Of a stretch of DNA of 57,088 nucleotides, positions 46,465 through 57,088 are shown one piece after another. Each line of letters starts with the position of its first letter. Position 1 is the stretch's first letter. This DNA is from Nitrosopumilales archaeon (GTDB taxonomy: Archaea > Thermoproteota > Nitrososphaeria > Nitrososphaerales > Nitrosopumilaceae): contig OMIR01000032.1 in assembly GCA_900299125.1 (NCBI GenBank), positions 1 to 57,088 on the forward strand. Reading direction: 5' to 3'. The notes beneath the pieces were generated by a model. That model did no database searches. It saw nothing but the letters and a program-made list of their open reading frames with translations, and was not told the DNA's origin. A program made the position numbers and the translations under genes.

Positions 46465-47958
46465 TTGAAGACATTATTAGTCATATTGCTGGTAATATCA
46501 ATACTAGTCTCAGGTTTTACACATACTGCAAATGCTCAACTTCAGGCCGGCGGTGTTAGTAAAGAAGGTTCATGGTATGTTGGTGAGGGACTCAAAAAAG
46601 GTGATCAATTTAGTTATAATTTATGTCATGTTTACTACAAGGATTGTACTCAATTCAAAATTGATTTTTGGGTAGAAGGAAGTGAAAAGGTAGGAACCGA
46701 AGATCAGTGGAAACTTCAAGTTGTTGTGTATGACGGTGGCAAAGTTCACAAAGGAACTATTAATTTAGGAAAAGTCGCCGCTGAACCAATTGGAAGTACT
46801 AAGAATTTAATTCCTTACGCTGCTGCATTCAAGTCTTCACTTTCCTGGCTCTCAGCTTATGCAACTGCTGATACTCAGGGTCTCACTGGTAAGGGTCCTA
46901 AAAAATTCTCAATGCCATCGTGGGGTAAAATCGGAAATATTGGCGGCGAACAAATCATACCCGGAAGCGAAGAAAAGGTTGCTGTCCCAGCTGGTATGTT
47001 TGATACCGTTAGAGTTACTTGGAAGACTGGGGGTAAAGTAAACAACGTATACATTGTTGATGAGTTTCCTTTCCCAGTTAAGGCAGATACATATGCACAT
47101 GTTGCGGAAGGTGTTCCACCTCAAGAATATAGATTTGAATTACTTGACTATGAACGCAATGTCACCATGAATCCTTTTGAAAAAATAAAGGATACTGGTA
47201 TTGATGCTTTTGGTAGTAATTGTCCAAGAGTTACCGATGATTTTACTCAAGTTAGCAAAAATACTAACACAAATACAATGATAATTAACTTGAAGTATTC
47301 TCCCAAAAATCCAAAACAAGGTTGCCCGATGGATATGATTATTGATTTTAAGCGTAAAGTCAATCAGGAAGAATTTGAGAATGAAGTTCATTATGATATT
47401 CTTGTAGTAAAGCCAACCAGTTCAGGCATTCCAGAAGTATTACGCTCACTTGCAGAAGAGGATAACCGAAACTCATTCTTTACTACTTCTGGACAAGTAA
47501 GAACTAGTATTGATCTTAAAGAATCTGGAAAAACTACCTATGCGATATTTGTTAAAGGAACTGGACCTGAGACTAAACCAGATCCTGCAAAAATCGGTTT
47601 TATTACATTTGATGTTGATGTTCAGGCAGGAACTATTAATCAAAAACCAGAATCGACTACAAAACCGACTCCCTCATCAGGAGAACTATCAATTCCATCA
47701 TGGATCAAGATTACTGCTAAATTCTGGGCGACTGATAAAATCACAGACAAAGACTTTGTCACAGGAATTCAATATCTGATTAAAAACAAAATTGTCAAAG
47801 TACCTCTAGGAAAACTAACAGATTCCAAAACTAATATGATTCCTGACTGGGTTAAGAAAAGTGCTGGTTCTTGGGCTGATGGAAAGATTACTGATAATGA
47901 ATTTGCCAATGGTCTACAATTTCTAATTTCTAACGGAATAATCAAATTAAAGTCTTAA
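46465..47958 (+). CDS. Secreted protein with two C-terminal I-P-x-W repeats
   Basis: 497-aa exported protein. TTG 46465 gives a clear signal peptide (K-T-L-L-V-I-L-L-V-I-S, cleavage probably after H-T-A-N-A near residue 25). A large domain starts with S-W-Y-V-G-E-G and contains I-V-D-E-F-P-F-P-V-K-A near residue 194. The C-terminus has two ~40-residue repeats, P-S-W-I-K-x2-A-K-F-W-A and P-D-W-V-K-x2-A-G-S-W-A, each with an I-T-D-x-[DE]-F segment. Such repeats are frequent in secreted thaumarchaeal proteins. A TATA-like CGTTTAACT lies 28 nt upstream. Confidence 0.82.
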   Translation: MKTLLVILLVISILVSGFTHTANAQLQAGGVSKEGSWYVGEGLKKGDQFSYNLCHVYYKDCTQFKIDFWVEGSEKVGTEDQWKLQVVVYDGGKVHKGTINLGKVAAEPIGSTKNLIPYAAAFKSSLSWLSAYATADTQGLTGKGPKKFSMPSWGKIGNIGGEQIIPGSEEKVAVPAGMFDTVRVTWKTGGKVNNVYIVDEFPFPVKADTYAHVAEGVPPQEYRFELLDYERNVTMNPFEKIKDTGIDAFGSNCPRVTDDFTQVSKNTNTNTMIINLKYSPKNPKQGCPMDMIIDFKRKVNQEEFENEVHYDILVVKPTSSGIPEVLRSLAEEDNRNSFFTTSGQVRTSIDLKESGKTTYAIFVKGTGPETKPDPAKIGFITFDVDVQAGTINQKPESTTKPTPSSGELSIPSWIKITAKFWATDKITDKDFVTGIQYLIKNKIVKVPLGKLTDSKTNMIPDWVKKSAGSWADGKITDNEFANGLQFLISNGIIKLKS

Positions 47959-47970
47959 TCATACATTTCA

Positions 47971-48645
47971 TTGGCTCAAAAAATTCTCATCATACCTTTA
48001 GCCATCATGCTTGGTGCTGCTGTAATTGGACTGACATATCCTTTTTGGAATGGTGTTCCAGGCTCGGAACAAAATGTAATACCTAGATTTGCAAATCAGT
48101 GGCATATAGGAGAAGGCTCTGAAAATCATCCTGTTTTACAATACGTGATAAATTACTCAGACAAAGAATTTCTGGCCACAATAGAATTCATGGAGAAAAA
48201 TGGAGATAATGAAAAAATTTACCTGTTAATTGATGATAAAAAATCTGGAGTACATTTGGAACAACAATTAGAAATCGGTGAAGCCTTTGTATTTATCGGC
48301 GTAAATGATGATCTAAAACCCTATGTACAAGCTTTGGATAAGACGGTTTTTTCAGTTAGAGATACAATTACTGGTTCCAAATACCTAGTTGTTGGTGCGG
48401 AATGGGGCACAACTTTTGTAGGAAAATTCAATCCGAAGCTCAAGGTCGTAGATTATTTGGATACAAAATTTCAATTTGGTGAACTCAAAACATTCGTTGT
48501 ATCTTATGAAATAAATCAAATCCAGAATAAGCTTTGGATTGTAGACAATATGCCGTTACCTGTTAAGGCTGAGTATTTTACAATAGATGGAAAACCTGAT
48601 TATTCTTATGAACTAGTTGATATCAAATCAGGTCCTCTGTCGTAA
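47971..48645 (+). CDS. Membrane-anchored or secreted paralog of the preceding protein
   Basis: 224-aa protein with an N-terminal hydrophobic segment (I-L-I-I-P-L-A-I-M-L-G-A-A-V near residue 5). It shares the main domain of its upstream neighbour: W-H-I-G-E-G near residue 45 and I-V-D-N-M-P-L-P-V-K-A near residue 191 line up with W-Y-V-G-E-G and I-V-D-E-F-P-F-P-V-K-A. It lacks the I-P-x-W repeats. TTG 47971 is 13 nt after the neighbour's stop, so they are likely one transcript. Its 3' end overlaps the convergent gene by 40 bp. Confidence 0.78.
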   Translation: MAQKILIIPLAIMLGAAVIGLTYPFWNGVPGSEQNVIPRFANQWHIGEGSENHPVLQYVINYSDKEFLATIEFMEKNGDNEKIYLLIDDKKSGVHLEQQLEIGEAFVFIGVNDDLKPYVQALDKTVFSVRDTITGSKYLVVGAEWGTTFVGKFNPKLKVVDYLDTKFQFGELKTFVVSYEINQIQNKLWIVDNMPLPVKAEYFTIDGKPDYSYELVDIKSGPLS

Positions 48646-50279: not shown

Positions 50280-50729
50280 ATGGAATTACTAGAAGAAAGT
50301 CAAAAAAATGATTGCGTTGCTGATGACTTCGTTGGCAAGCGTGTCATTGATAGAGAGGGAATAAAATATGGTGAGATTAAGCATATACACATCAACTCAA
50401 AAACCTTGACAGTTTCCGGTGTCACAATTCATCAAGGATTTCATAATGATTATTTTCTTTCTGCTGACTACATAGATAATTTCACCAATGAGTCGTTACT
50501 TCTTTCCAGATCTCCTGTTAGAAACAACGTTCAGGTAGTGGATATTGATGGGCATAAGATTGGTAAAATAAAACGACTAGTCAAAGATCCGTTAACAAAT
50601 GAACTAAATTCTATCGAGGTCTCAGATGGTTTTATTCACTCCAAAATTGTGAGCAAACAAGATATCTGGGGAGTTGGGGAAAAAGTCATCCTCAGAATGA
50701 CAAGAGAAGAATTCAAAAAAATACACTAG
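50280..50729 (+). CDS. PRC-barrel-like domain protein
   Basis: 149-aa protein with two barrel-type repeats: F-V-G-K-R-V-I-D-R-E-G-I-K-Y-G-E-I near residue 18 and V-Q-V-V-D-I-D-G-H-K-I-G-K-I near residue 84. PRC-barrel domains bind partners in photosynthetic reaction centres, RimM and archaeal cell-division proteins (CdpB). The protein lacks other domains. CdpB-like function is possible, but not supported beyond the fold. Confidence 0.7.
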   Translation: MELLEESQKNDCVADDFVGKRVIDREGIKYGEIKHIHINSKTLTVSGVTIHQGFHNDYFLSADYIDNFTNESLLLSRSPVRNNVQVVDIDGHKIGKIKRLVKDPLTNELNSIEVSDGFIHSKIVSKQDIWGVGEKVILRMTREEFKKIH

Positions 50730-50918: not shown

Positions 50919-51926
50919 ATGTACTCAATTCAAACTAAAAAACTCAAAAAAATATACAAATCTGGGACTGTTGCTGTTGATGAAATATCCTTCGATGTGG
51001 AAGAGGGAGAGATCTTTGGTTTTCTTGGACCAAACGGCGCAGGAAAGAGTACCACTATGATGATTCTGACCACTCTTCTAAAACCATCTGGGGGTCAAGC
51101 TTTTGTATCCGGATTTGACATTACCACTCAACAAAAAAATGTTCGACAGAGTATAGGATATGTTCAACAAGATGTCACAATAGATGAGTATCTCACTGGA
51201 AGAGAAAATCTTTTACTTCAAGCACGACTCAATCATATTCCTAAAAATCTGATCTCATCTAGAATAGATGACTTGTTGAATTTAGTAGAATTAAATGAAA
51301 AAGCTGATGATCCCACAATAACTTATTCGGGTGGAATGAGAAAAAGACTAGAAATCGCAGGCGGGCTTTTACACAGACCTAAAGTATTGTTTCTCGATGA
51401 ACCTACCGTCGGATTAGACATTCAAACAAGACAAAAAATCTGGGAATATATAAAAAAAATTCATACTGAATACAAAATGACTATTTTTCTGACAACTCAT
51501 TATATGGAAGAGGCCGACAAATTGTGTGGTAGAATAGGAATTATCGATAACGGTAAAATTCAAACAATAGATTCCCCTTCTAATCTAAAAAATACTCTTG
51601 GTGGAGGGATAATTACTCTAATTGTGGATGACAGCCCATCAAAAAATGATCTTATATCAAAAATCAAACAAATTCAATTTATTCAAGACGTGACAATCAC
51701 GGAAAATAAAATAACTATTTTTACTTCAAAAGGTACCGATGTCGCTCCATTGATCTTTTCAATGTCTTCAAATTTTGGAGTGACAATTCGCTCAATATCA
51801 ATTACACAACCTACACTTGATGATGTTTTTTTATCGTTTACTGGACATGATCTTAGGGATGATAACACTAAGAAATCTTACGATCGGAGAAAAGAATATC
51901 GAAAAATCCAGAGGATGAAATCATGA
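50919..51926 (+). CDS. ABC transporter ATP-binding protein (DrrA-type)
   Basis: 335-aa ATPase of an ABC-2-type exporter. Walker A G-P-N-G-A-G-K-S-T is near residue 38, the signature S-G-G-M-R-K-R near residue 135 and Walker B L-F-L-D-E-P-T-V-G-L-D near residue 157. A C-terminal extension follows the ATPase core, ending in a basic tail. It overlaps the permease gene by 4 nt (ATGA). The substrate is unknown; drug, lipid or polysaccharide export are possible. Confidence 0.92.
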   Translation: MYSIQTKKLKKIYKSGTVAVDEISFDVEEGEIFGFLGPNGAGKSTTMMILTTLLKPSGGQAFVSGFDITTQQKNVRQSIGYVQQDVTIDEYLTGRENLLLQARLNHIPKNLISSRIDDLLNLVELNEKADDPTITYSGGMRKRLEIAGGLLHRPKVLFLDEPTVGLDIQTRQKIWEYIKKIHTEYKMTIFLTTHYMEEADKLCGRIGIIDNGKIQTIDSPSNLKNTLGGGIITLIVDDSPSKNDLISKIKQIQFIQDVTITENKITIFTSKGTDVAPLIFSMSSNFGVTIRSISITQPTLDDVFLSFTGHDLRDDNTKKSYDRRKEYRKIQRMKS

Positions 51927-52699
51927 TGTTATATGATACTTACACTATATTTTGGCGAGAGTTAAAACGTTACAGAAAATCTAGAAGCGGCGTTTTAATT
52001 CGATTAATACAACCAGCAATTTGGATAATTGTAATCGGTCATACATTTGCTGGAACTAAACCATTAATCCAATCTGTTGGATTTAATGGTAGTTACCTGG
52101 AATTCATGGCTCCGGGTGTCATCATATTAACTGCCATATTTACGAGTATTTTTGGTGGCGTCAACACATTATGGGATAGAAGATATGGATTCATGAATAA
52201 GGCGCTTGTATCTCCAGTTTCTAGATCATCAATTGCTCTTGGAAAAATGCTTGCAATTTCAGTAATATCTGCAATGCAGTCGGCCATGATTATAGGTATA
52301 TCTATAATTATTGGTGTTACATTTTCGAATTTTTTAGTTATTGTCCCCATCATGGCAATTGTCATATTGTTTTCATTGGGATTTTCTGGAATTTCAGTAA
52401 TTGTGGCCGCCACAGCGAAATCTCAAGAAACATTCTGGGGAATAATCAATTTCTTAGGAATGCCTCTGTTCATGCTCAGTCCTGCACTCTTTCCCTTGGA
52501 ATTACTTCCTGACTGGCTAGCAGGAATTGCCAAACTAAATCCTGTGACCTATACTGTACTACTGGTAAGAGAAATGATGACAGGAGTTACTGAGGGAGTT
52601 TCTACTTTCATGAGTATGGGAATAATTGGTATTTTTGTAGTTTCGATGCTCGCTTTGGCAAGCTATGTTTTTACTCGTGAAGTGAACAAACCTTTCTAG
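51923..52699 (+). CDS. ABC-2 type transporter permease
   Basis: 258-aa membrane protein with about six hydrophobic segments. The N-terminal R-E-L-K-R-Y-R-K-S-R and the S-P-A-L-F-P-L-E-L-L-P segment near residue 190 are typical of ABC-2 permeases of the DrrB/NodJ type. Together with the preceding ATPase it forms a complete exporter. The next gene downstream encodes a large secreted repeat protein, but a shared role is not shown. Confidence 0.9.
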   Translation: MMLYDTYTIFWRELKRYRKSRSGVLIRLIQPAIWIIVIGHTFAGTKPLIQSVGFNGSYLEFMAPGVIILTAIFTSIFGGVNTLWDRRYGFMNKALVSPVSRSSIALGKMLAISVISAMQSAMIIGISIIIGVTFSNFLVIVPIMAIVILFSLGFSGISVIVAATAKSQETFWGIINFLGMPLFMLSPALFPLELLPDWLAGIAKLNPVTYTVLLVREMMTGVTEGVSTFMSMGIIGIFVVSMLALASYVFTREVNKPF

Positions 52700-52773
52700 G
52701 TTTAAAAAATTGACCTGAACTTCAAAAATTTCTAACTAGGTAGATCTTGTGTAGATACAGCCAAAACTTTATC

Positions 52774-55700
52774 GTGCAAGGTAAAATAGTTACACTAATC
52801 GCATTTCTTGCTATATCTGCATTCTCATTCCAAACCGTGATGGGTTATGCGAGTTACCCATATGTCTTAAGCTTTGGGACACAGGGGTTGGTTAAGACTG
52901 GGGTTTTCACATATCCTCAACATGTTGCGGTTGATGATTCTGGGAATGTATACGTGACAGATCTAGGAAATGCTCGAGTTCAGAAATTTGATAATGATGG
53001 ACAGTTCTTACACTCATGGGGATCCAAAGGAACCGGTAAAACTGAATTTCATGCACCAGAAGGAATAGCCGTGGGTAAAGGATATGTCTATGTTGTTGAT
53101 CACGAATTGAATGTAATTAAAAAATTTGACACTAATGGAAATTTCATAACCTCATGGGGTGGAACAGGCGTTGATAATGGATACCTAAAACTTCCTACCG
53201 GCATTGCAGTTTCAAAAGATAACTTTGTTTATGTTGTAGATACTGGCAATTCAAGAATACAAAAATTTGACACTAATGGCAAATTTGTATCAGTTATAGG
53301 TTCAAGTGGTACAGGAGACGGTCAATTCTTAACACCATTAGATGTTGCTATAGATTCTAATAACAATATTTTTGTTACTGATAATGGATACAAAAAAATT
53401 CTCAAATTCAATTCAGATGGTGTTTATTTATCTAGTTATACGTCATCATTTGGTGGAATAAAACTATCACCTGATGGGATTGATATTGATTCTGATTCAA
53501 AAATGATAGTTGCCGATTCAGGAAATAATAGAATAGTCGTATTAGATGGTGACGGTAAAACAGTTGCCAGCTTTGGCAAAACAGGAACAGGTAACTCACA
53601 ATTTAAGATGCCCAAAGGGATTGCCACTGATCTTGACGGTGATCTATTTGTCGTAGATTCAAGTAATCACAGAATACAAAAATTTGGATCTCAAGATAAC
53701 ATGACAGAAAGTATTTCTGTTTCCACAACTCAAACTACTAAAATTAATTCTAAATCTATCGAGTCTGAGCAAAACAACCCAGTAACTGTGACTAGAACTA
53801 TAGTAAATGATCTCAAAAAACCCAATATTAACCCCCCAAAGGATCTATATGTTGAGGCCACTGGTGGATTAACAAGAATTTCTATAGGTCAAGCAATAGC
53901 AATTGATGACTCTGGTATTAAATCGCTAACAAATAATGCCCCTAATGAGTTTCCTTTGGGTACGACTACGGTGATATGGACTGCTATTGACAATTCAGGA
54001 AATGTCGGAATTGCTACTCAGACAATCACTGTAGTGGATTCTACACCTCCACTGATATATGGTTTGAGTGATATCTCTCAGGAAACAAAAGGTCTGGAAA
54101 ATTCAGTGAATCTTGGGTATCCAAAAGTAGATGATTTAGTTGGTGTTTTATCAATTACAAACGATGCACCAGAAACATTCCGTTTGGGAGAAACCGTTGT
54201 TACTTGGACTGCTGTTGATGTTGCAAAAAATGAAGCAACTGCAATACAAACCATAACAATTATTGATACTAAACCACCTAAAGTTATTGCTCCAGCTGAT
54301 ATTAATTCAGAAGCTACAAGTCTTGATAAAAATATGATTATTTTAGGCGAGCCAATAATTTCTGATGATTCTGAAATCTATTCAATAACTAATGATGCAC
54401 CGGAATTCTTCCCACTAGGTGAAACAACCGTTACCTGGACAGTATCTGATGTGTCTGGAAATTTAGGTTCGGCAAAGCAAAAAGTGACTATCGTCGATAC
54501 TTCAAAACCGAAAATTTTGCCAATGGATAGTGCTGTGGTTGAGGCAATATCTGAAAAAAATAATTCTGTCACATTAATTCCTCCAAATGTGACTGATGTT
54601 CAAATCGTAAAAATAACTAATGATGCACCGGAATTCTTCCCACTGGGTGAAACCATAGTGACCTGGACCGCTACTGATTTATCTGGAAATAACTCTACGA
54701 CTCTTCAAAAAATTAATGTTGTAGATACTACAGCACCAAATTTGATTACACCACCTGATATAATTCAAGAGGCAAAAAGTAAGACTGGTAATATTGTATC
54801 TCTTGGAGAATCTTTGACTACTGATACAACAGGTTTTACATCTACTGTTAATGATGGACCTTCCGAATATTCCTTAGGTACAACAATTGTTACTTGGACT
54901 GCTTCTGATAATTTTGGAAATACTGTGTCAAAGATTCAAAATGTCACAATAATTGATACTACGGCACCAAAAATATCGTCTCCTGGGAAAATAGTTTTTG
55001 AGGCAACAAGTTTATTTGAAAACATCATTGATTTAGGAATCCCAAAGACGTCTGATTCGGTGGAAGTATTGGCAATAACTAACGATGCACCAGAATTTTT
55101 CCCACTAGGTGAAACAACCGTCACCTGGACCGTATCTGATACTTCGGGAAACACTAACACTGCCGCTCAGATTGTATCTGTAGTGGATACAACCGCACCT
55201 ATAATTACAATACCTGAAAATATCATTAAAGAAGCAGATAGCCTCAACACTACAAAATTTTCAATTGGGGATGCGGTAGCTAATGATCTCAACAAAGTAG
55301 AATCAATAACTAACGATGCACCAGAATTCTTCCCACTAGGTGAAACCATAGTGACCTGGACTGCTACTGACGGAGCTGGAAACACAAGTACAGCTACTCA
55401 AAAAATAACAATTGTGGATACAACTAAACCAGAGATTTCCAAACCATCTGACATCACTCAAGAGGCAATATCTAAACTAGAAAATACAGTGACTTTAGAA
55501 ACTCCATTAGCATCAGATAATGTCGGAATAGAATCAATAACTAACGATGCACCAGAATTCTTCCCACTAGGTGAAACCATAGTGACTTGGACTGCTACTG
55601 ACTCTGTGGGATTATTGACAACTGCATCACAAAAAGTGATTATTGTAGATACAACCAAACCAGAAATACACATTTCTAATGTAGAAGTTGAAGCCACTAG

Positions 55701-57088
55701 TGAAAGTATGAATACGGTTGATCTTGGGGAGATCAAGACCACTGATAAGGTTGAAGTTACATCAATAACTAACGACGCACCTGAAAATTTTAAACTTGGT
55801 GTGACAATTGTTACTTGGACAGTTACAGACGAATCTGGTAATTCTGCAAGTGTACAACAGTCAGTGACGGTCCACGATTATACATCACCAATTATTACAC
55901 CACCATCAGATATCTCAACTGATGCAAAATCATCTGATAAAAATATTATATTGCTTGGAAATCCTATTGCGCGAGATACAGTAAGTAATGTATCAATAAC
56001 TAACGATGCACCAGAATTCTTCCCACTCGGTGAAACTACAGTGACCTGGACCGCGACTGACTCTTCAGGTAATGCTGTGAATGCCACACAAAAAGTCATA
56101 CTCACTGATATGACTAGTCCAATCATAAAATCCCCCGTGGATGTGATTCAAGAAGCTACATCACTATCAAATAATCTGGTAAACCTTGGTGACGCACAGG
56201 CTGAAGATGCAATTGGAATAGAATCAATAACTAACGATGCACCAGAATTCTTCCCACTAGGTGAAACCATAGTGACTTGGACTGCTACTGACGGAGCTGG
56301 AAACACAAGTACAGCTACTCAAAAAATAACAATTGTGGATACAACTAAACCAGAGATTTCCAAACCATCTGACATCACTCAAGAGGCGACATCTAAACTA
56401 GAAAATACAGTGACTTTAGAAACTCCATTAGCATCAGATAATGTTAGAATAGAATCAATAACTAACGATGCACCAGAATTCTTCCCACTAGGTGAAACCA
56501 TAGTGACTTGGACTGCTACTGACGGAGCTGGAAACTTGGAATCAATAAGTCAAAAAATTATAATTCAAGATACAATATCTCCTAAATTTGCAAAAATATC
56601 TGACGCAGTTGTAGAAGCGACCAGTAAAGACTCTAACAGTATTAGTCTACAACCACCTGTTGTCACAGATATTTCTGATATTAAATCCCTGATTAACGAT
56701 GCCCCAGAGAAATTTTCATTAGGAGAAACCATGGTAATCTGGACTGCTGCTGATGATGCAGGAAATGAATCTTTTACATCACAAAAAGTTACAGTGATCG
56801 ACACTTCATCACCTGTTCTAACTATACCTGATGATGTTGTTACAGATTTGATATCTATTAGAACCCCAGTGATAGTAGGTCTAGCAACAGCAACCGATCT
56901 AACTGATGATCATCCTAAAATTACCAACGACGCACCAGATACATTTCCAATTGGGCAAACAACTGTGACATGGATAGCTCAGGACAAATTCGGTAACTCT
57001 ATGAATAAAACACAAATCGTGACAATTCAGGCATGTGGTAAACCAGAGTCTACCTACAATCTAATAATTGGTACAGAAGATGATGATA
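52774..57088 (+). CDS. Very large secreted NHL/HYR repeat protein (partial, continues past window)
   Basis: Open for at least 1,438 codons from GTG 52774 (in-frame stop at 52741) to the window edge. A signal peptide (T-L-I-A-F-L-A-I-S-A-F-S-F, residues about 6-18) precedes about six NHL-type repeats (A-V-D-D-S-G-N-V-Y-V-T-D ... R-V-Q-K-F), forming a beta propeller near residues 30-310. After a Ser/Thr linker come 14 HYR-type repeats of ~77 residues, each with T-N-D-A-P-E-F-F-P-L-G-E-T and T-W-T. The last residues, Y-N-L-I-I-G-T-E-D-D-D, look like the start of a Ca-binding repeat. Probably cell-surface. Confidence 0.88.
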   Translation, partial: MQGKIVTLIAFLAISAFSFQTVMGYASYPYVLSFGTQGLVKTGVFTYPQHVAVDDSGNVYVTDLGNARVQKFDNDGQFLHSWGSKGTGKTEFHAPEGIAVGKGYVYVVDHELNVIKKFDTNGNFITSWGGTGVDNGYLKLPTGIAVSKDNFVYVVDTGNSRIQKFDTNGKFVSVIGSSGTGDGQFLTPLDVAIDSNNNIFVTDNGYKKILKFNSDGVYLSSYTSSFGGIKLSPDGIDIDSDSKMIVADSGNNRIVVLDGDGKTVASFGKTGTGNSQFKMPKGIATDLDGDLFVVDSSNHRIQKFGSQDNMTESISVSTTQTTKINSKSIESEQNNPVTVTRTIVNDLKKPNINPPKDLYVEATGGLTRISIGQAIAIDDSGIKSLTNNAPNEFPLGTTTVIWTAIDNSGNVGIATQTITVVDSTPPLIYGLSDISQETKGLENSVNLGYPKVDDLVGVLSITNDAPETFRLGETVVTWTAVDVAKNEATAIQTITIIDTKPPKVIAPADINSEATSLDKNMIILGEPIISDDSEIYSITNDAPEFFPLGETTVTWTVSDVSGNLGSAKQKVTIVDTSKPKILPMDSAVVEAISEKNNSVTLIPPNVTDVQIVKITNDAPEFFPLGETIVTWTATDLSGNNSTTLQKINVVDTTAPNLITPPDIIQEAKSKTGNIVSLGESLTTDTTGFTSTVNDGPSEYSLGTTIVTWTASDNFGNTVSKIQNVTIIDTTAPKISSPGKIVFEATSLFENIIDLGIPKTSDSVEVLAITNDAPEFFPLGETTVTWTVSDTSGNTNTAAQIVSVVDTTAPIITIPENIIKEADSLNTTKFSIGDAVANDLNKVESITNDAPEFFPLGETIVTWTATDGAGNTSTATQKITIVDTTKPEISKPSDITQEAISKLENTVTLETPLASDNVGIESITNDAPEFFPLGETIVTWTATDSVGLLTTASQKVIIVDTTKPEIHISNVEVEATSESMNTVDLGEIKTTDKVEVTSITNDAPENFKLGVTIVTWTVTDESGNSASVQQSVTVHDYTSPIITPPSDISTDAKSSDKNIILLGNPIARDTVSNVSITNDAPEFFPLGETTVTWTATDSSGNAVNATQKVILTDMTSPIIKSPVDVIQEATSLSNNLVNLGDAQAEDAIGIESITNDAPEFFPLGETIVTWTATDGAGNTSTATQKITIVDTTKPEISKPSDITQEATSKLENTVTLETPLASDNVRIESITNDAPEFFPLGETIVTWTATDGAGNLESISQKIIIQDTISPKFAKISDAVVEATSKDSNSISLQPPVVTDISDIKSLINDAPEKFSLGETMVIWTAADDAGNESFTSQKVTVIDTSSPVLTIPDDVVTDLISIRTPVIVGLATATDLTDDHPKITNDAPDTFPIGQTTVTWIAQDKFGNSMNKTQIVTIQACGKPESTYNLIIGTEDDD
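52900..53695 (+). repeat. NHL repeats (about six) forming a predicted beta propeller
   Basis: Within the large secreted protein, units of roughly 42-47 codons repeat the pattern hydrophobic-V-A-V-D-x-x-G-N-[VI]-[YF]-V-[TV]-D-x-x-N-x-R-[VI]-Q-K-F-D. Positions with R-[VI]-Q-K-F occur near 52975, 53255 and 53670, with diverged forms in between (I-K-K-F, I-L-K-F, I-V-V-L). Six such units are enough for a closed propeller. Confidence 0.8.
55300..55602 (+). repeat. Internal 303-bp near-identical duplication, copy A
   Basis: This segment matches 56221-56523 with only five mismatches by eye (near 55357, two near 55464-55466, two near 55524-55525). The offset is 921 bp, equal to four HYR units, so a recent duplication or gene-conversion event within the array is likely. 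Confidence 0.9.
56221..56523 (+). repeat. Internal 303-bp near-identical duplication, copy B
   Basis: Second copy of the segment at 55300-55602. Flanking units on both sides have diverged, so identity is limited to about 1.3 HYR units. Confidence 0.9.

What the first reader, a model, noticed from the sequence alone, without database searches (positions are those of the whole stretch)
52774..57088. Giant secreted NHL-propeller/HYR-array protein
Signal peptide, about six NHL repeats and at least 14 HYR-like domains in one frame of more than 1,438 codons. The combination suggests a long surface stalk with a propeller head, possibly for adhesion or cell-cell contact. It lies right after an ABC-2 exporter.
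Basis: partly seen in the sequence, partly recalled or inferred. Interest (0 to 1): 0.65.

Follow-up and report, generated by a model that had tools for sequence, protein, structure and literature searches.

The report
Archaeal propeller-on-a-stalk surface protein
This gene of an ammonia-oxidising archaeon encodes a large exported protein with a six-bladed propeller, a stalk of 14 repeated domains and a calcium-binding-type end cap; its relatives, at the same chromosomal place across the family, keep both ends but have stalks of 1 to 25 repeats.

Summary
A 1,438-codon frame (GTG 52774) runs off the contig; the window is the whole contig. Its end lies on another contig of the same genome (exact 121-bp overlap): 1,535 aa = N-terminal export signal (read by eye) + 6-bladed NHL propeller + Ser/Thr-rich linker + 14 HYR units (76-77 aa) + an RTX cap.

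Relatives at the same locus (PRC-barrel, ABC pair, gene, hemL) in about 40 genomes of the family keep both ends, while HYR number is 1, 9-19 or 25. Long arrays look ancestral; one two-genus clade shrank to one HYR. Four acidic residues per HYR are nearly invariant, even in a lineage that lost half its other acids, suggesting calcium ligands between stalk domains. Models give a confident propeller and HYR rods, resembling cadherins and RTX-adhesin extenders.

The adjacent ABC-2 exporter is probably incidental: five genomes keep the gene without a close copy of it.

Most likely: a secreted, surface-held protein presenting a binding propeller on a calcium-stiffened stalk of evolvable length. Location, anchoring and ligand are inferred. 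I found no description in open literature; the parts are known, the conserved family with variable stalk looks new.

The parts
52774..57088 (+). Giant secreted protein gene, 5' 1,438 codons; the remaining 97 codons lie on contig C103 (L023, ending at 412-414)
   Evidence: Open frame; exact 121-bp overlap of the contig ends, joined frame 1,535 aa
52774..52845 (+). N-terminal export signal (basic residue, hydrophobic stretch; AxA-type cleavage site clear in relatives)
   Evidence: Sequence read by eye in the window and relatives L012, L055, L056; no signal-peptide predictor was available
52846..53688 (+). Six-bladed NHL beta-propeller
   Evidence: PF01436 E=1.8e-35; six blades; AlphaFold model mostly above pLDDT 85; best fold matches Drosophila Thin and TRIM NHL domains, TM 0.88-0.91 over the target
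53689..53811 (+). Flexible Ser/Thr/Asn-rich linker between propeller and stalk
   Evidence: pLDDT below 50 over model residues 284-345
53812..57033 (+). Array of 14 HYR domains (76-77 aa each), the stalk
   Evidence: PF02494 E=6.5e-73; unit list and spacing; 231-bp tandem array at 55298-56535; three-unit AlphaFold model pLDDT 95.7
53812..54039 (+). HYR unit 1, the unit that keeps its place across the family; the single HYR of the short forms mostly resembles it best
   Evidence: Unit-by-unit identities
57034..57087 (+). Start of the C-terminal RTX cap (CGKPESTYNLIIGTEDDD...); continues on L023:64-411, stop 412-414
   Evidence: PF00353 twice above cut-off; PDB sequence matches to RTX regions; four-cysteine pattern
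52700..52773 (+). Intergenic stretch with about 50 bases conserved across the genus: candidate promoter of the gene
   Evidence: Upstream alignment of seven genomes
51923..52699 (+). ABC-2 permease (DrrB-like), neighbour, probably not the exporter of this protein
   Evidence: PF01061; ortholog absent in five genomes that keep the giant gene
50919..51926 (+). ABC transporter ATPase (DrrA subfamily), neighbour
   Evidence: TIGR01188 above cut-off
50280..50729 (+). PRC-barrel protein, conserved upstream neighbour
   Evidence: PF05239; synteny

Best explanation
A secreted surface protein that presents a ligand-binding NHL propeller on a stalk of HYR beta-sandwich domains. It leaves the cell by its N-terminal signal, folds outside, and is held at the cell surface, probably through its C-terminal RTX cap, which four cysteines staple. 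Calcium bound by four conserved acidic residues per HYR stiffens the stalk. Stalk length changes by unequal recombination between near-identical units, while the propeller, HYR unit 1 and the cap are kept; the core machine is propeller plus one HYR plus cap. Shown: architecture, common locus, fixed ends, variable number, near-invariant acids and cysteines, predicted folds. Inferred: export route, surface retention and its end, calcium binding, disulfides, and binding or adhesion as the propeller's job.
For: Domains and full length. About 40 loci in the family, nearly all in the same gene order (PRC, ABC pair, gene, hemL), with constant ends and HYR number 1, 9-19 or 25. Long arrays in all deep branches, one HYR only in the clade g5+g15. 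Units keep their order within the genus; exact intra-array repeats of up to 1,036 bp in a complete genome show recent unit duplication. Four acids per HYR are present at 1,292 of 1,298 sites outside genus g16; in g16 they are retained at 88% while other acids fall from 8.1% to 3.7%. Structure models and matches to cadherins and to the extender of an Aeromonas RTX adhesin, whose linkers bind Ca2+ (PMC7493085). The cap's cysteine pattern recurs in other large exported-looking proteins, as expected for a shared anchoring or folding module.
Against: No C-terminal membrane anchor is apparent, so the protein could simply be released. No localisation, proteome or binding data. Propeller residues conserved across the family are mostly the blade motif itself, so no ligand site stands out. 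One large clade has a single HYR, so reach is not essential. The RTX cap lost most of its aspartates in g16, so calcium binding by the cap can hardly be essential in that lineage. Overall TM-scores of the HYR rod to cadherins are low (0.3-0.4), so the match is of domain type, not of rod shape.
Confidence: 0.55

Rival explanations
1. The propeller is an enzyme or nutrient-capturing domain (NHL propellers include the peptide-amidating lyase), and HYR plus cap only keep it near the cell; it is not an adhesin.
For: The propeller matches peptidyl-glycine alpha-amidating monooxygenase weakly (E=1.4e-9); short forms with one HYR suit a cell-bound enzyme.
Against: No invariant histidines or other catalytic-looking set among the near-invariant propeller residues; closest sequence and fold matches are binding propellers, Thin and TRIM proteins.
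Confidence: 0.2
2. A structural component of the S-layer or outer matrix: the rods link or decorate the lattice through the RTX cap, without a specific distant ligand.
For: Wide presence across most genera of the family; shared cap type on other large exported-looking proteins; more glycosylation sequons and fewer acids in the likely acid-soil lineage, as expected for an envelope component.
Against: Apparently missing from genus g11 and several others; a single-copy gene of widely variable length is unusual for a lattice part.
Confidence: 0.2
3. A substrate of the neighbouring ABC-2 exporter, working as a unit with it.
For: Immediate neighbours on the same strand in most relatives.
Against: Own N-terminal signal; 74-bp gap with its own conserved upstream block; permease ortholog absent in G006, G210, G209, G201 and G186 while the gene is kept.
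Confidence: 0.05

Closest known systems
RTX adhesins of Gram-negative bacteria (MpIBP/MpAFP, SiiE, AhLap, MhLap)
   Same: Long tandem beta-sandwich extender, RTX repeats at the C-terminus, conserved acidic positions; the AhLap extender 6xi1 is among the best fold matches
   Different: N-terminal export signal instead of type 1 secretion; no outer membrane; HYR family units; NHL propeller at the N-terminus; no sequence match in the stalk
[quoted passage not shown] 2002, cited in PMC10811736)
   Same: Archaeal surface protein design of propeller plus Ig-like domains
   Different: From my own knowledge those are Methanosarcina proteins with other propellers and PKD domains; not compared here by sequence
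[quoted passage not shown]
   Same: Both domain types are reported as present in these archaea
   Different: Only named as domains; no single family, architecture, synteny or stalk variation described in the passage read
TRIM/Thin NHL propellers and PknD sensor propeller
   Same: Same fold and NHL repeat family
   Different: Intracellular RNA or protein binders, or kinase sensor; no HYR stalk or RTX cap

Membership tests
HYR domain family (PF02494) | Match above the curated cut-off | tested here: met
   241.5 bits against 21.7, 13 stretches; all 13 single matches over cut-off
NHL repeat family (PF01436) | Match above cut-off and six blades closing a propeller | tested here: met
   119.7 bits against 20; six blades; propeller model
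RTX / HemolysinCabind repeats (PF00353) | GGxGxDxUx nonapeptides above cut-off | tested here: met
   Two matches, 37.1 and 28.8 bits against 23; on contig C103, beyond the window
Gram-negative RTX adhesins | Type 1 secretion without N-terminal signal peptide | tested here: not met
   N-terminal signal present by eye in window and relatives
Gram-negative RTX adhesins | Ca2+ coordinated in linkers between extender domains | tested here: inconclusive
   Four near-invariant acids per unit, selectively retained in g16; geometry not measured
ScyF (NF035926) | Score above 350 bits | tested here: not met
   168.6 bits
Surface adhesin (functional class) | Located on the surface and binds a target | not testable with these tools
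   Needs localisation and binding experiments

The most novel reading that the evidence does not exclude
A family-wide archaeal surface organ with fixed ends and a tunable stalk: propeller and cysteine-stapled RTX cap are conserved across most genera of the ammonia-oxidiser family (probably Nitrosopumilaceae), while the calcium-stiffened stalk is lengthened, shortened or nearly deleted, and the whole protein is re-tuned for low pH, to set how far from the envelope the head works.
Probability: 0.45. Interest if true: 0.68.

Novelty: new variant of a known kind. Interest (0 to 1): 0.5.

Why it matters
Ammonia-oxidising archaea are very abundant, yet apart from the S-layer little is known of what sits on their surface. 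A gene at one conserved locus, with constant ends and a stalk that ranges from 1 to 25 domains, gives a natural series for asking what surface reach does. The lineage in which most acids are lost but four per domain remain points to the stalk's ligand residues and makes calcium stiffening testable.

Tried and rejected
ABC-2 exporter as the dedicated secretion system: weakened by loss of the permease ortholog in five genomes with the gene. ScyF membership: below cut-off. Assembly artefact or premature end: no stop in frame; the frame continues on C103 with a 121-bp overlap. HYR stalk relatives by sequence in the PDB: only chance matches. An equivalent outside the family: in the 12 more distant genomes searched, none of the listed matches joins propeller and HYR array. 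Catalytic signature in the propeller: none seen. Literature search for the architecture gave only domain mentions.

Full report
Observation. The frame from GTG 52774 has no stop up to the last base of the window, and the window is a whole contig, C32. Pfam finds HYR (E=6.5e-73) and NHL (E=1.8e-35). Unit spacing gives 14 HYR domains of 76-77 aa, and a model built from the window's own blades gives six NHL blades. HYR occurs nowhere else in this genome. The N-terminal export signal was read by eye in the window and relatives; no predictor was run.

The missing end. RTX repeats in this genome lie only at the start of contig C103. Its first 121 bases equal the last 121 of the window, the frame continues, and it stops at L023:412-414, giving 1,535 aa. 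The downstream genes are hemL, hemC and on, as in the uninterrupted relative L012. The protein is therefore signal, propeller, linker, 14 HYR, RTX cap.

The family. A protein search of 250 family genomes gave matches in 205, many of them partial or paralogous. I took about 40 loci and read them. Nearly all show the same gene order (PRC-barrel, ABC ATPase, ABC-2 permease, this gene, hemL); L063 keeps none of the neighbours, and some lack the ABC pair or have no hemL within reach. In complete copies the propeller and cap are constant while HYR number is 1, 9, 10, 11, 12, 13, 15, 17, 19 or 25; three loci are split by frame breaks. In a tree of the head and neighbours rooted on genus g16 (a root chosen from background knowledge), long arrays occupy all deep branches and the single-HYR form is confined to g5+g15, so contraction is the simpler reading. 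Genus g11 and some others appear to lack the gene.

How the array evolves. Within genus g1 each unit mostly matches the unit at the same place in relatives; the window lacks counterparts of units 8, 15 and 16 of L055. Across genera, unit 1 almost always finds unit 1 and the last unit often finds the last, while inner units lose their positional match (L055 against L061). The single HYR of the short forms mostly resembles unit 1 best, by a modest margin. Exact repeats of up to 1,036 bp lie inside the array of a complete genome (L065); in the window the longest is 110 bp. Such repeats can break or collapse short-read assemblies, so the number 14 is the assembled one.

Structure. The propeller is predicted with confidence and matches Thin and TRIM NHL domains. 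The linker is disordered. Three HYR units give a model with mean pLDDT 95.7, whose best matches are cadherin ectodomains and the extender of an Aeromonas RTX adhesin, although overall TM-scores are low. In such extenders calcium sits in the linkers and stiffens the rod (PMC7493085).

Conserved acids. Four acidic positions per HYR (14, 32, 60 and 76 of the unit) are acidic at 1,292 of 1,298 places outside genus g16. In g16 the other HYR columns drop from 8.1% to 3.7% acid, yet these four keep 88%. The cap's aspartate content is 6% in g16 against 14-20% elsewhere, and glycosylation sequons are 48-59 per protein in three g16 examples against 2-25 in six others. One g16 genome has the size (1,805,304 bp) and local GC (37.4%) of Nitrosotalea devanaterra (1.81 Mb, 37.07%; PMC5817080), an acidophile with extra surface glycosylation clusters (PMC4836417). 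This pattern suggests that the four acids are ligands, but I could not measure geometry.

Cysteines. Nearly all complete orthologs have four cysteines in the cap, at 0, +45, about +100 and +111 to +114, and almost none in the mature part elsewhere; two g14 members lack the third. The same layout closes other large, exported-looking proteins in relatives (L105-L108, L110, L112-L114 and others) and one protein of another family of the order (L117). A shared folding or anchoring module is the likely reading; disulfides are inferred.

The ABC-2 neighbour. It adjoins the gene in most relatives, but four g16 loci and L063 lack it, and whole-genome search of those five genomes found only 26-36% relatives, against 77% in G179. 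The gene also has its own conserved upstream block. I do not regard the transporter as its exporter.

Verdict. Function as a binding or contact protein at the surface is the best guess and is not shown. Searches of open-access papers gave only mention of the domain types in these archaea, so the family as described seems not to have been reported there; subscription literature was not searchable.

Noticed in passing
L105, L106, L107, L108, L110, L112, L113, L114 (other loci of relatives), L117 (another family): Other large exported-looking proteins end in, or contain near the end, the same four-cysteine RTX module, with different domains in front.
   Followed up: partly
L065, L066, L067, L085, L086, L087, L090, L091 (genus g16): The RTX cap has lost most aspartates (6% against 14-20%) in favour of asparagine, while its cysteines stay; looks like adaptation to low pH.
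   Followed up: partly
window 52700-52773: About 50 intergenic bases upstream of the gene are strongly conserved across the genus.
   Followed up: partly
L024:3405-6050 (contig C85, minus strand): A second NHL-repeat protein of this genome, at least 881 aa, without HYR or RTX, next to alcohol-dehydrogenase-like and luciferase-like genes (names judged by eye).
   Followed up: no
window 46465-47958 and 47971-48645: Two neighbouring proteins with N-terminal signals and no Pfam family are kept in the same order in many relatives.
   Followed up: no
L069, L089, L091: In three genomes the giant gene is split by frame breaks, either real decay or assembly errors in repeats.
   Followed up: no
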